Positions 11,322-58,589 of a stretch of DNA of 64,000 nucleotides are shown piece by piece. Source of the DNA: Fictibacillus halophilus. GTDB lineage: Bacteria; Bacillota; Bacilli; Bacillales; Fictibacillaceae. The notes under the pieces are model-generated. The model was given only the letters and a program-made list of their open reading frames with translations, was not told the DNA's origin and did no database searches. The stretch lies in assembly GCF_016401385.1 (NCBI RefSeq), contig NZ_JAEACF010000001.1, positions 1,426,001-1,490,000 of the forward strand. The letters run 5' to 3'. Positions within the stretch are counted from its first letter, which is position 1, and every line of letters begins with the position of its first letter. Both the position numbers and the translations under genes were made by a program.

Positions 11322-11753
11322 GGTACCAATAACGTTCTGTAAGCCATGTTCTGTTCCTTAGTACTACAAACGGCTGGTAGCCTCGTACACCGGTGGTAAT
11401 CATCTATCTACAAAAAGCCTTGGCTTCTTGTTCTCCCAATCGTTCAATTCCGAAATGGGAAACTCCCCTACCATAATTTGGGTTTCTCGCTCGTGGGGTT
11501 TACCGCGTTCCACTCCCTCTGTTTCCATCGGGACTACGTCACTGTGGCACTTTCAAGGTATTAACACCATATCCAAAGGACTTAGGTGCGTTCCCTGCCG
11601 TTAGTCCAGTAAGCTTTATTCAAGCAAACCAAGCTACCCTGGCTTATTTTTTGGCCAGGCACGATCATTACGGTCATCTCAGATCCGTGCGAGCATGGAC
11701 TTTCCTCTAAACCTGAAAAATCAGATCCAGCGATTACCCGAACGCTATTGATT
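11322..11753 (-). ncRNA. rnpB: RNase P RNA, type B
   Basis: This is the catalytic RNA of RNase P, which matures tRNA 5' ends. On the minus strand it carries GCGTTCGGGTAATCGCTG near the 5' end, GAGGAAAGTCCATGCTCGCA (P4/CR-I), CTTGAAAGTGCCACAGTGAC, GGTAAACCCC and GCGAGAAACCC, and ends with ACATGGCTTACAGAACGTTA. These are the conserved segments of the Bacillus type B RNA. The ends were set by the 10-bp P1 pairing between 11741-11750 and 11327-11336, extended by a few bases. The exact 5' and 3' nucleotides are approximate. Confidence 0.95.
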
Positions 11754-17095: not shown

Positions 17096-17467
17096 ATGAA
17101 AAAGATCAGTGTATTTATGGATGATTATCGTAGTCCGCCTGAAGGATATGTCTTCGTAGAAACGATAGATGAATGTATGAAACTTCTAAGGAACCATGAC
17201 ATTGAGCATTTATCATTAGATCACGATTTATTGAGCAGAACAAGAAATGGTCTCATGCTCGTAAAAATGATGATTAAGGAAAAGTTATTTGCAAATCGAA
17301 TAACCATTCACTCTGCGAATTCTGTTGGTGGCAAGAACATGTACAATTGCCTTAAACAAGCTCAAAAAGACTTAATCATGCCTCACACTATCATTGTTTC
17401 CTTACGCCCACTTCCACTAAAATATATTCCGCCGCGCGTGCTTCAGCATTATAGTGATATCAAATAA
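17096..17467 (+). CDS. Cyclic-phosphate-processing-type receiver (cREC) protein
   Basis: The 123-residue protein is a stand-alone receiver-like domain of the cREC type rather than a classical response regulator. Acidic pairs occur at FMDDYRSPP (Asp9, Asp10) and LSLDHDL (Asp42, Asp44), and HSANSVGGKNM (72-82) replaces the usual Ser/Thr-Lys region. Such domains are predicted to process cyclic phosphates at RNA or nucleotide ends and are often found in RNA-repair and defence contexts. That activity is a family prediction. It is convergent with the PP2C gene, 37 bases apart, and has AAGGGAG 10 bases before the ATG. Confidence 0.7.
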   Translation: MKKISVFMDDYRSPPEGYVFVETIDECMKLLRNHDIEHLSLDHDLLSRTRNGLMLVKMMIKEKLFANRITIHSANSVGGKNMYNCLKQAQKDLIMPHTIIVSLRPLPLKYIPPRVLQHYSDIK

Positions 17468-17504: not shown

Positions 17505-18305
17505 TTACAGATCACTTGGCAAACTAGCTGTTTCCTCTATATAAACAGACCAGGCGATGATGGTCGTACTATCCCTTACATGATTTCTTTTTATTTCATC
17601 CATAAGAAAATGAACGCCTTCATCTAAACTCATATCGCTCAATACTTTTTGAACCTCTGCCGCATCTTCGTATGGAACACCTGGACATTCAGTCAGCCCA
17701 TCAGTTGTCATGAAAATTTGGTTAAGTCCCTTTCTCATTTCTTTCTTCCCCGTACTATAACAAGGTACCGGAAGTTCAAATGTATTCACTTCACCAACCC
17801 ATTCGTAAAAACTTCGCTGAACAAGCTGCCTTTCACCTAGTGCTATCAATTCAGGATGAAATAGATGAAGAATACAATCTCCCACGGAGAACCACCATAA
17901 ATACTTTTCTTTTCGCACAACGATTAAACAAGCTGTTTCACCCGTAGTCTTCCGGCAAGATTCCATAAAATCAGGATCTTGAAAGATATCTAGTATAAGA
18001 TGATCTAACTTTTTAAGGGCTACACTTGCGGACTCTGCGAGCACACGCTTGATTACGTTCTCATTCTTTAGAAAATGATTCAAAACGAGTTCGACACTTT
18101 GTGCTGTCTTATGCCCATCAAGGACCATTGTAAATTCCCAGTTTTCCGCTTCGTTGATCCATACTAAACATCCATCTTCATTTTTATATGAACCCGCTGC
18201 AGAATTACCTCCAAATCTACCTACCGAAACGTTATGTACTTGTGTTACATCTAATTGATCTACAAATGTCTTATGACTTCCAACCCAAGTCAAATTAGTA
18301 TTCAT
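17505..18305 (-). CDS. PP2C-family protein phosphatase-like protein
   Basis: The 266-residue protein has the metal-dependent PP2C fold: NEDG near 42-45, VLDGHKTAQS with Asp63, the strand WWFSVGDCILHLF near 133-145, FMTTDGLTECPG near 203-214 and the final RDSTTIIAW near 245-253. The last motif usually reads DNxT; here Asp and a Ser/Thr remain, so metal binding is plausible but not certain. The substrate is unknown. Its ATG overlaps the end of the HIT gene by 11 bases, so it is translated together with HIT and lies under the same T-box. Confidence 0.82.
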   Translation of the reverse strand: MNTNLTWVGSHKTFVDQLDVTQVHNVSVGRFGGNSAAGSYKNEDGCLVWINEAENWEFTMVLDGHKTAQSVELVLNHFLKNENVIKRVLAESASVALKKLDHLILDIFQDPDFMESCRKTTGETACLIVVRKEKYLWWFSVGDCILHLFHPELIALGERQLVQRSFYEWVGEVNTFELPVPCYSTGKKEMRKGLNQIFMTTDGLTECPGVPYEDAAEVQKVLSDMSLDEGVHFLMDEIKRNHVRDSTTIIAWSVYIEETASLPSDL

Positions 18306-18753
18306 ATCTATTCTCCTCCAAATGATTTTTTACACGTTCGCAAACTTTGACAATATCTTCATTCCTTCCAAACGGAGCATCCGCCCAACCATAGACTTCA
18401 TTCGGTCCCCAATATTCCTCTGGTGTATTTGGATAACGCGGAACGATGTGCATATGCAGGTGGGCAACAGAATTTCCAGATACCAGTGCATAAATGTGTT
18501 CTGCATTCTCTGTTTCCTTTATGGCTCTGCTCACTCGAGCCATGATCTGACCGAATGCATTTGCTTCTTGTATGGTCAGGTCACCAAGACTTGCTGCGTG
18601 TCGCTTCAGGTCGATCATGATATGCCCTAGGTATGATGGCTGGCCTCCTTTATCAATATGACCCACATAAACAAATTCATCTTCAAATATTTTTACACCT
18701 GCTGTTTCAATAGTGCCTTTATGTTTGTCGCAAATAAAACAATCCTCACTCAC
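18295..18753 (-). CDS. HIT-family nucleotide hydrolase
   Basis: This 152-residue histidine-triad protein should hydrolyse dinucleoside polyphosphates or aminoacyl-/phosphoramidate-AMP conjugates. The triad is HLHMHIVPR (His98, His100, His102). N-terminal CFIC (Cys5, Cys8) plus DKH could contribute to a zinc site, as in many HIT proteins. The GTG start is fixed by AAAGGGGAG 7 bases upstream. It is the first gene after a complete T-box leader and is overlapped by the PP2C gene. HIT proteins acting on aminoacyl-AMP would make sense under tRNA-charging control, but this is inference. Confidence 0.9.
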   Translation of the reverse strand: MSEDCFICDKHKGTIETAGVKIFEDEFVYVGHIDKGGQPSYLGHIMIDLKRHAASLGDLTIQEANAFGQIMARVSRAIKETENAEHIYALVSGNSVAHLHMHIVPRYPNTPEEYWGPNEVYGWADAPFGRNEDIVKVCERVKNHLEENRYEY

Positions 18754-18775
18754 TTCTGATCTCCCCTTTAATAAA

Positions 18776-19012
18776 CAAAAAGCCCATCATCTCTTAAAGA
18801 GACGATAGGCAATTCCTAACGTGGTACCACTCTTCTTTGCTTGCAAAAAATCCATGCAAACCTCAGAACCTGATTACGGTGGTTAACCGTACAGACCTCA
18901 TTTTAGTCTGTCCACTCCAAGGCAAGTTCAGGATACTTGTTGACTGCATCTCACCCTTCTGCAGCTCTCTAAACAACAATAAGACCCCTACTACTCCTAA
19001 TCATCACGTTTA
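18776..19012 (-). promoter_or_regulatory. T-box riboswitch, leucine-type specifier (CUU)
   Basis: All T-box landmarks are present on the minus strand: the loop-E AGTA near 18990 opposite GAA, apical AGAGAGCTGC and GGTGAGATGCAG, the antiterminator TGGTACCACG, and a terminator hairpin (GCCTATCGTCTCTT / AAGAGATGATGGGC plus TTTTTG). The three bases after GAA read CTT, followed by G, which would recognise tRNA-Leu. The antiterminator TGGT fits a tRNA with discriminator A. It ends about 23 bases before the HIT start. The specifier assignment rests on manual folding. Confidence 0.88.
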
Positions 19013-19032
19013 ACGATGGAAAACTTTTACTA

Positions 19033-19061
19033 ATGATAAGATGATTAGTAATTTCTGTCAA
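19033..19061 (-). promoter_or_regulatory. SigA promoter of the T-box operon
   Basis: TTGACA and TATCAT are separated by exactly 17 bases on the minus strand, about 20 bases upstream of the T-box stem I. The -35 lies within the end of the broken grpB frame. Confidence 0.75.
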
Positions 19062-52250: not shown

Positions 52251-52459
52251 CAATAAAAATAGCCTAGAGTATATAGATGCGTTCTACCTCTAGACCAATG
52301 GAGTTAAAGTATCATTAAGCAAAGTGATCTTGCTAAATTAATGGCTGACATACTTGTATTTCAAAATATAACTCAACCTATTACTTCAACTCGTAGTCCA
52401 GTTCTTTCATTGGGAACCGGGTAGAAACACTCAGACCATATTACCGAGCATATACGAGT
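52251..52459 (-). promoter_or_regulatory. Purine riboswitch, guanine type
   Basis: On the minus strand the aptamer spans 52389-52459: P1 is the perfect pair ACTCGTA / TACGAGT; L2 has TAATATGG; J2/3 is GTTTCTACC; P3 is CCGGTTC / AGAACTGG with loop CCAATGA; J3/1 reads GGACTACG. The specificity base after GA is C, as in guanine-sensing members (adenine sensors have T). A terminator hairpin CTAGAGGTAGA / TCTATATACTCTAG with TATTTTTATTG lies at 52251-52293, 43 bases before the enzyme's start. Guanine should switch the gene off. The terminator/antiterminator exchange is inferred. Confidence 0.9.
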
Positions 52460-52691
52460 AATTCGTTTTTTTGTATGTTACTTTGATAATATAACAATAA
52501 TGCATTTCATTTTCAATATAAAACTTAACGTTAATCATTAAAAATTATTTAATGTTCGTGTTTTTTCAAACTCTATATGTATATTCATAATGTCTGAACA
52601 ATCCTTATTTAACAAAATCTATCTTCTCTACTCTTTTTTACGATGAAATATTTTCAGATTCAATAAGGGCTTTCTTTCCAGTTTCATATGT

Positions 52692-58337: not shown

Positions 58338-58589
58338 AAAAAGACCACATCCCTAAAACACAAGGGACGTGGTCTAACTATTTACACGCGGTACCACCCT
58401 AATTGAAGAACAAACATTCTTCCACTCAAACTTAATAACGGTATTCCCGTTCTTCGTCAAATAGAATAGACGAAGAAAGCTCTTGGAAATGTAATTCACA
58501 TGATCTTTGTACTGATTCACACCAACCATCAGCTCTCTAAAAACAGGGAGATCTTTGCTACTGCGTTTCCTGTCATCGCATTTTTATAT
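58338..58589 (-). promoter_or_regulatory. T-box riboswitch of tyrZ (Tyr, UAC)
   Basis: On the minus strand: AGTA loop-E, AGAGAGCTG apical loop, specifier region GTGAATTACATTTCC containing TAC for tyrosine, the antiterminator AGGGTGGTACCGCG, and a terminator AGACCACGTCCCT / AGGGATGTGGTCT with a T run. It lies between the MarR gene and tyrZ. Uncharged tRNA-Tyr should allow read-through. Confidence 0.93.

What the first reader, a model, noticed from the sequence alone, without database searches (positions are those of the whole stretch)
17505..19061. A complete T-box with a Leu-type specifier controls a HIT hydrolase and a PP2C phosphatase
Seen: a strong promoter (TTGACA-17-TATCAT), full T-box landmarks, and the first gene 23 bases downstream being HIT, then PP2C with an 11-base overlap. 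Known: T-boxes normally control synthetases, amino acid biosynthesis or transport. Inference: either uncharged tRNA-Leu induces a nucleotide hydrolase (HIT can cleave aminoacyl-AMP) plus phosphatase stress response, or the T-box is orphaned after loss of its original gene.
Basis: partly seen in the sequence, partly recalled or inferred. Interest (0 to 1): 0.72.

Follow-up and report, generated by a model that had tools for sequence, protein, structure and literature searches.

The report
Leucine T-box driving HIT and PP2C
An RNA switch that should sense uncharged leucine tRNA sits before a nucleotide hydrolase and a phosphatase in many Bacillus relatives, and its close relatives sit before members of enzyme families that can disarm antibiotics mimicking activated amino acids, so it may be an inducible defence switch.

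Summary
A complete T-box (RF00230, 118 bits, window 19013-18795 minus) with specifier CUU (Leu), its own promoter and a terminator precedes HIT and PP2C genes overlapping by 11 bases. It is not an orphan: 23 of 73 named loci with this HIT carry the same T-box directly before it, under nine genus names. The specifier is a CUN leucine codon in 52 of 52 HIT-linked T-boxes counted (38 distinct), and 26 of 46 base pairs show two-sided changes. leuS and a permease here have their own CUC T-boxes. A model of these T-boxes then found close relatives elsewhere before leuA, but also before an MccF-like S66 peptidase (S51 peptidase behind it), GNAT acetyltransferases and methyltransferases. Enzymes of the S66, S51, GNAT and HIT families can inactivate aminoacyl-nucleotide antibiotics such as microcin C. 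Best reading: uncharged tRNA-Leu, raised by leucine shortage or by a leucyl-tRNA synthetase inhibitor, switches on a hydrolase for aminoacyl-nucleotides plus a phosphatase of unknown target. The switch is well supported by sequence; the defence role is inferred. Against it: HIT lacks the MccH-clade lysine, known MccF is Asp/Glu-specific, the S66 and GNAT pairings are rare, and Rim-type GNAT T-boxes read valine.

The parts
19033..19061 (-). promoter TTGACA-17-TATCAT; the -35 overlaps the end of the upstream GrpB-like ORF (stop at 19045)
   Evidence: read from sequence; a similar arrangement seen by eye in many T-box-positive relatives
18795..19013 (-). T-box leader (Stem I, II, III, antiterminator)
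   Evidence: RF00230 118.2 bits; 29-sequence alignment A1 with covariation
18924..18926 (-). specifier codon CUU (Leu), followed by purine G
   Evidence: CUN in 52 of 52 HIT-linked T-boxes
18820..18834 (-). T-box sequence AAGAGUGGUACCACG with UGGU bulge for the tRNA acceptor end
   Evidence: discriminator A of tRNA-Leu(GAG)
18777..18810 (-). intrinsic terminator: hairpin 18782-18810 and T-run 18777-18781, exclusive with the antiterminator
   Evidence: in A1 the terminator helix has 98.0% of cells paired, 4 of 12 pairs with changes on both sides
18295..18753 (-). HIT family hydrolase, 152 aa, triad H98-H100-H102
   Evidence: PF01230; triad conserved at 97% or more in 74 HITs; model pLDDT 88, Foldseek best 2oik
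17505..18305 (-). PP2C_2 phosphatase, 266 aa, conserved D44, D63, D202, D245 (taken as metal-site residues from recalled PP2C motifs)
   Evidence: PF13672; conserved at 97% or more in 69 PP2Cs; model pLDDT 88, Foldseek PP2C structures

Best explanation
A leucine T-box controls the HIT-PP2C operon by transcription antitermination: with charged tRNA-Leu the terminator forms; uncharged tRNA-Leu, read by the CUU specifier and the UGGU bulge, stabilises the antiterminator and the operon is made. Uncharged tRNA-Leu rises in leucine shortage and also when leucyl-tRNA synthetase (LeuRS) is inhibited. I propose that the second signal matters here: HIT hydrolyses a leucyl-nucleotide-like LeuRS inhibitor, as some HIT phosphoramidases do for microcin C, so the poison's effect switches on its own removal. 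PP2C is a partner with unknown target. Shown from sequence: the T-box, its leucine codon, its conservation and the enzyme families. Inferred: induction itself, the substrate and the role of PP2C. The switch alone I hold at about 0.93; the whole statement at the value below.
For: T-box directly before HIT in 23 of 73 named loci and in 15 of 29 fetched HIT loci of relatives, own genome left out. CUN codon followed by a purine in 52 of 52 HIT-linked T-boxes, with CUC/CUU/CUA synonymous changes. Two-sided changes in 26 of 46 pairs, 0 of 500 shuffles. HIT and PP2C are one 416-aa protein behind the T-box in Alkalihalobacterium chitinilyticum (L122). Of 57 T-boxes at 165 bits or more with the HIT-T-box model, 33 precede HIT, 10 leuA, 6 methyltransferases, 4 GNATs, 1 S66, 1 PP2C alone, 2 no gene within 450 bases. 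The S66 protein, in a genome of the window's genus that also has T-box-HIT, matches MccF structures at 6e-22 against 1e-7 for a muramoyltetrapeptide carboxypeptidase, with an S51 peptidase behind it. G311 has T-box, Rim-type GNAT, ArsR-type, MFS and S66 genes in a row. RimL/MccE, MccF (S66), MccG (S51) and MccH (HIT) inactivate aminoacyl-nucleotides (passages).
Against: No expression or enzyme data. HIT keeps the third triad His (H102) and has S92 where the MccH clade has Glu; the MccH clade has Lys in the third place, and E. coli HinT did not cleave aspartamide-adenylate. Known MccF cleaves effectively only aspartyl and glutamyl adenylates (PMC3817062 passage). NCBIfam gives the L202 S66 protein only a sub-cut-off carboxypeptidase match (49 of 378 bits). 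'Rim-type' rests on PF13302 and solved relatives that include RimJ-like and spermidine acetyltransferases; the paper credits RimL, not RimI or RimJ. Five related T-boxes read GUC (Val): all three before Rim-type GNATs (L229, L242/L304, L306), one before PP2C alone, one before a methyltransferase. No T-box of this type at 50 of 73 named HIT loci. Of the 30 S66 loci closest to L202 none has a complete T-box of this type within about 1.5 kb, of 30 GNAT loci only the query's own. leuA, leuS and permease targets fit plain leucine supply.
Confidence: 0.5

Rival explanations
1. Plain leucine-starvation response: the operon is made when leucine is short, and HIT clears side products of idle synthetases (mis-activated aminoacyl-AMP, Ap4A-type dinucleotides) while PP2C resets phosphoproteins of translation or growth. 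No antibiotic is involved.
For: The same T-box type precedes leuA (10 of 57), and weaker matches precede leuS and an APC-type permease. Fold neighbours of HIT include Ap4A phosphorylases and Fhit. Some T-box-free cassettes have CodY-like boxes: 7 of 49 with at most 2 mismatches against a shuffled mean of 0.4, highest 2 in 60 rounds.
Against: Does not explain S66, S51, GNAT, methyltransferase and MFS genes behind related T-boxes. The CodY signal rests on a conserved right half-site in related sequences and a recalled consensus.
Confidence: 0.35
2. PP2C is the reason for the amino acid control: it dephosphorylates a protein in amino acid shortage and HIT is a passenger.
For: One genome of the window's genus (G001) keeps T-box-PP2C with this HIT missing; the catalytic residues of PP2C are conserved.
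Against: That T-box reads GUC (Val), not CUN. HIT without detected PP2C also exists (5 of 73, one of them an actinobacterial outlier).
Confidence: 0.1
3. Orphaned T-box left after loss of a leucine gene, with no present function.
For: T-boxes of this type move between genes, and one has been lost: F. nanhaiensis MER TA 111 (L059) keeps only what looks by eye like a terminator remnant.
Against: Conserved adjacency, codon and two-sided changes; T-box state clustered on the HIT-PP2C tree, 8 changes against 20.3 shuffled; leuS has its own T-box here.
Confidence: 0.03

Closest known systems
T-box riboswitch (Rfam RF00230), Leu type, as before leuS, ilv-leu and yvbW of Bacillus
   Same: All landmarks, CUN specifier, transcription termination design, UGGU bulge
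   Different: Controls a HIT hydrolase and a PP2C phosphatase instead of a synthetase, biosynthesis or transport gene; with the HIT-T-box model the nearest relative in this genome is the permease T-box (146.6 bits), not leuS (79.2 bits)
MccH / HIT phosphoramidases giving resistance to microcin C-like compounds (PMC7157772, passages)
   Same: HIT family, first two triad histidines, standalone gene; proposed attack on aminoacyl-nucleotides
   Different: Third triad residue is His, not the Lys of the MccH clade; substrate unknown; controlled by a T-box
Microcin C immunity enzymes MccE/RimL (GNAT), MccF (S66), MccG (S51)
   Same: Members of these families stand behind related T-boxes in other genomes (L202, L229, L304, L306)
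   Different: Not in the window; the literature enzymes act on aspartyl-type or many aminoacyl-nucleotides, here the T-boxes are of leucine or valine type; activity untested
PP2C phosphatases (PppA, PstP, tPphA)
   Same: Predicted fold and conserved catalytic residues
   Different: Single-domain protein tied to HIT; a sequence search finds no solved relative at E 0.1

Membership tests
T-box riboswitch RF00230 | covariance model match over the gathering score | tested here: met
   118.2 bits against 93
T-box riboswitch RF00230 | specifier codon matching a tRNA of the host | tested here: met
   CUU; tRNA-Leu(GAG) present
T-box riboswitch RF00230 | T-box bulge complementary to the tRNA acceptor end | tested here: met
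   UGGU against ACCA of tRNA-Leu(GAG)
T-box riboswitch RF00230 | mutually exclusive terminator and antiterminator | tested here: met
   both conserved in 29 aligned leaders; 97.4% and 97.1% of cells paired
T-box riboswitch RF00230 | induction by uncharged tRNA-Leu | not testable with these tools
   needs a reporter
HIT superfamily hydrolase | HxHxH triad and Pfam PF01230 | tested here: met
MccH clade | motif ExxxxxHxHxK (Lys in place of the third triad His, Glu six residues before the first) | tested here: not met
   H102 and S92 here
PP2C phosphatase | PF13672 match and conserved catalytic Asp residues | tested here: met
PP2C phosphatase | phosphatase activity | not testable with these tools
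   assay needed
MccF (for the S66 proteins of L202 and L304, outside the window) | closer to MccF than to LD-carboxypeptidases | tested here: met
   best solved matches named MccF, 6e-22 and 2e-28, against 1e-7 and 1e-12 for a muramoyltetrapeptide carboxypeptidase; sequence search only, activity not testable
MccG (for the S51 protein of L202, outside the window) | clade V of S51 peptidases | not tested
   only PF03575, 49 bits; no solved relative at 0.001

The most novel reading that the evidence does not exclude
A family of leucine and valine T-box RNAs in Bacilli has been turned from amino acid metabolism to antibiotic defence: a synthetase inhibitor raises uncharged tRNA, and the T-box then switches on enzymes that destroy or modify aminoacyl-nucleotide poisons (HIT-PP2C, S66 with S51, Rim-type GNAT-MFS-S66, GNAT-methyltransferase). 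The tRNA is the sensor of the antibiotic's effect, so one RNA can guard against any inhibitor of that synthetase.
Probability: 0.42. Interest if true: 0.82.

Novelty: new variant of a known kind. Interest (0 to 1): 0.66.

Why it matters
T-boxes are known as feedback switches for synthetases, amino acid biosynthesis and transport. Here the same RNA is held by selection before a nucleotide hydrolase and phosphatase, and close relatives stand before members of families that include aminoacyl-nucleotide immunity enzymes. If the reading is right, T-boxes include a class of antibiotic-responsive switches that sense inhibition of a synthetase through its tRNA. The specifier would then name the synthetase under attack, which gives a way to predict, from sequence alone, which synthetase inhibitors soil bacteria meet.

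Tried and rejected
Orphan T-box: rejected. A leucine gene between T-box and HIT: none in the HIT loci read. leuS T-box moved to HIT: unlikely, leuS has its own T-box, and the permease T-box is the nearer relative. Conserved third gene of the operon: none common to the 73 named loci, whose neighbours differ. A regulon sharing the AAAAGTTTTCCAT element in this genome: 3 sites with up to 3 mismatches, control 5. CodY control of T-box-free cassettes: 7 of 49 at 2 or fewer mismatches against 0.4 shuffled, 0 of 23 T-box-positive loci; the left half is not conserved and the consensus was recalled, so left open. Anti-phage defence library: only a weak HIT match, E 2e-4. Plasmid carriage of HIT: no match at 1e-20 in PLSDB. 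Systematic T-box control of MccF-like or Rim-like genes: not found; no complete T-box at 30 S66 loci and 1 (the query) at 30 GNAT loci. G174 has the GNAT-ArsR-MFS-S66 row without a T-box.

Literature: searches pairing T-box with HIT family, histidine triad, PP2C, synthetase inhibitor and resistance gene, and self-resistance or immunity found nothing by title or abstract start on this arrangement (the papers listed were not opened). Term look-ups in TBDB (PMC7778990; histidine triad, phosphatase, hydrolase), Wels 2008 (PMC2494555) and PMC3766115 (HIT, phosphatase, hydrolase) found none of these words in the main texts. The 2008 and 2009 T-box reviews (PMC2271356, PMC2650889) are not held, and database tables and supplements were not readable, so an earlier listing cannot be excluded.

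Full report
What is in the window. On the minus strand lie, in order, a promoter (19061-19033), a T-box leader (19013-18795), a terminator (18810-18777), a HIT hydrolase (18753-18295) and a PP2C phosphatase (18305-17505). The T-box scores 118.2 bits against a gathering score of 93. The specifier reads CUU and is followed by a purine. The nearest named relatives of the HIT-PP2C pair are Fictibacillus.

Is it more than chance. The leader folds at z = -3.0. In the antiterminator form 97.1% of cells pair and 26 of 46 pairs show changes on both sides, against 11.5 in shuffles, 0 of 500 as high; the terminator form gives 97.4% and 26 against 12.3. Partners slid by one to three columns pair in 34-47% of cells. 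The structure came from the same alignment, which favours it, and related sequences can exceed such shuffles.

Is the codon leucine. In 52 HIT-linked T-boxes (23 named, 1 own, 28 unnamed; 38 distinct sequences, because the collections overlap) the codon is CUC, CUU or CUA, always followed by a purine. For the 23 named it is 17 CUC, 5 CUU, 1 CUA. Five more read outside that count (L224, L236, L237, L311, L317) are CUC. Variation confined to the third position is what a leucine box should show. tRNA-Leu(GAG) is present, and its discriminator A completes the match to UGGU.

Other T-boxes of the genome. 22 were found, 21 over the cut-off. For 20 of the other 21 (L021 was not run) the longest ORF starting within 450 bases is a synthetase, amino acid biosynthesis or transport gene. 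leuS (L007) and an APC-type permease (L012) have CUC T-boxes, so the HIT T-box is not a displaced leuS switch. With a model of HIT T-boxes (R1) the permease T-box scores 146.6 and leuS 79.2 bits.

Conservation. The search for related loci gave 73 named loci with this HIT. PP2C was detected in 68 of 73, directly behind HIT; in L122 the two are one 416-aa protein. A T-box of this type stands directly before HIT in 23 of 73 (22 of these built the model, L121 did not): Fictibacillus, Rossellomorea, Niallia, Psychrobacillus, Planococcus, Neobacillus, Alkalihalobacterium, Terribacillus and several strains named Bacillus. The gap from T-box to HIT is 20-44 bases. In unnamed relatives, 148 of 149 genomes have some HIT match, but only the close group (E below 1e-55: own and 33 others) is this family; of 29 such loci fetched beside the own one, 15 carry the T-box. 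On a HIT-PP2C tree (73 rows, L125 left out, quick method, 20 of 70 inner branches open) the T-box state changes at least 8 times, against 20.3 for shuffled labels. So it is kept within clades and gained or lost between them. In F. nanhaiensis MER TA 111 the T-box is gone and another ORF lies close before HIT, with what looks by eye like a terminator remnant.

The proteins. HIT keeps the triad H98-H100-H102 in 97% or more of 74 sequences; PP2C keeps D44, D63, D202 and D245 in 69. AlphaFold models have mean pLDDT 88 each and match HIT and PP2C structures.

Following the T-box instead of the gene. R1 was searched in 120 relatives, 397 genomes of the order and 398 of the class (the sets overlap). 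I took each listed T-box at 165 bits or more, 57 in all, and identified the first gene (the first HIT loci by coordinates): HIT 33, leuA 10, methyltransferase 6 (L205, L226, L233, L314, L315, L316), GNAT 4 (L222, L229, L312, L313), S66 1 (L202), PP2C alone 1 (L203), no gene within 450 bases 2 (G038, where a methyltransferase follows at 463 bases, and G148). Checked by profile: one leuA (L204), the methyltransferases L205, L226, L233, L314, the GNATs L222, L229, L312, the S66 and the PP2C; the remaining leuA, methyltransferase and GNAT genes were assigned by eye from the same N-terminal sequence. Matches below 165 bits were read only in part; they include APC-type permeases, leuS, two more HIT-PP2C loci (L236, L237), two more GNATs (L242/L304, L306) and two more methyltransferases (L318, L319).

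Why this points to detoxification. L202 lies in a genome of the window's own genus that also has the T-box-HIT unit (G015). Its S66 protein matches MccF structures at 6e-22, and 180 bases behind it is an S51 peptidase (the gap leaves co-transcription open). G311 carries T-box, Rim-type GNAT, ArsR-type regulator, MFS transporter and an MccF-like S66 protein in a row; G291 has the row without S66 in the stretch read; G174 has it without a T-box. From passages I read: RimL and MccE acetylate many aminoacyl-nucleotides and MccF cleaves the acyl-phosphoramidate link (PMC3817062); S51 enzymes named MccG cleave processed microcin C, and several standalone Bacillus homologues protect (PMC9239234); HIT enzymes of the MccH clade cleave aspartamide-adenylate (PMC7157772). 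Agrocin 84, a nucleotide antibiotic, inhibits a tRNA synthetase (passage of PMC6429109), named LeuRS in the abstract start of PMC5059758 (listing). A LeuRS inhibitor would raise uncharged tRNA-Leu, which is the T-box's input.

Results against it. HIT has His, not Lys, at the third triad place and Ser, not Glu, at position 92, so it fails the MccH test. Known MccF cleaves effectively only aspartyl and glutamyl adenylates. 'Rim-type' is a family label; the nearest solved relatives include RimJ-like and spermidine acetyltransferases, and the paper credits RimL only. T-boxes are not usual before MccF-like or Rim-like genes (30 of 134 S66 matches and 30 of 67 GNAT matches were fetched; one S66 locus has a cut-off 26-bit piece at its edge). 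Five related T-boxes (L203, L229, L233, L242/L304, L306) read GUC, a valine codon, among them all three before Rim-type GNATs. leuA and permease targets fit ordinary leucine supply. No experiment is at hand.

A telling single case. In G001, of the window's genus, this HIT is missing and PP2C follows the T-box at about 32 bases; that T-box reads GUC. Leucine sensing may be tied to HIT rather than PP2C, but this is one case.

Verdict. The T-box-HIT-PP2C unit is real, conserved and leucine-typed. The orphan alternative falls. That the operon, with other genes behind related T-boxes, is a defence against synthetase inhibitors is the best single account of all targets, at about even odds, with plain leucine-starvation housekeeping as the main rival.

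Noticed in passing
window 58360-58585 (-): A second T-box (134.9 bits), before tyrS, an ordinary target.
   Followed up: yes
window 52374-52477 (-) and 11335-11745 (-): Purine riboswitch aptamer (76.4 bits) and RNase P class B RNA (293.1 bits).
   Followed up: no
window 19016-19028 (-); L053-L124: A conserved AAAAGTTTTCCAT-like element 4 bases 3' of the -10, in 13 of 23 T-box-positive named loci (a 14th pattern hit lies inside Stem I); GAAAATTATACCAAT-like near -35 in 18 of 49 T-box-free ones. Function unknown.
   Followed up: partly
L122 (Alkalihalobacterium chitinilyticum), also L212 (G175): HIT and PP2C fused into one 416-aa ORF behind the T-box.
   Followed up: partly
L203 (G001): This HIT missing, T-box-PP2C kept, specifier GUC (Val).
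   Followed up: partly
L229, L242/L304, L306, L233: T-boxes of this type with a GUC (Val) specifier before Rim-type GNATs (three) and a methyltransferase (one).
   Followed up: partly
L312-L316, L318, L319: CUC T-boxes before GNAT or methyltransferase genes in genomes of the same class outside the order; in L312 a GNAT is followed by a methyltransferase like that of L314. Substrates unknown.
   Followed up: partly
L317 (G588): T-box-HIT-PP2C in a genome outside the order (HIT 44% identical); its PP2C matches in two pieces.
   Followed up: partly
L087: Contig titled Chryseobacterium sp. ISL-80 groups among Bacillaceae on the tree; the organism name is probably wrong.
   Followed up: no
G690, G611, G627, G643, G666, G698: Two T-boxes in tandem, about 25-30 bases apart; where read (L320, L327) a leuA-type gene follows (by eye).
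   Followed up: no
window 17096-17467 (+): A cREC_REC protein convergent to PP2C; found beside it in 9 of the 10 named Fictibacillus HIT loci (L053-L061, not F. macauensis L073).
   Followed up: no
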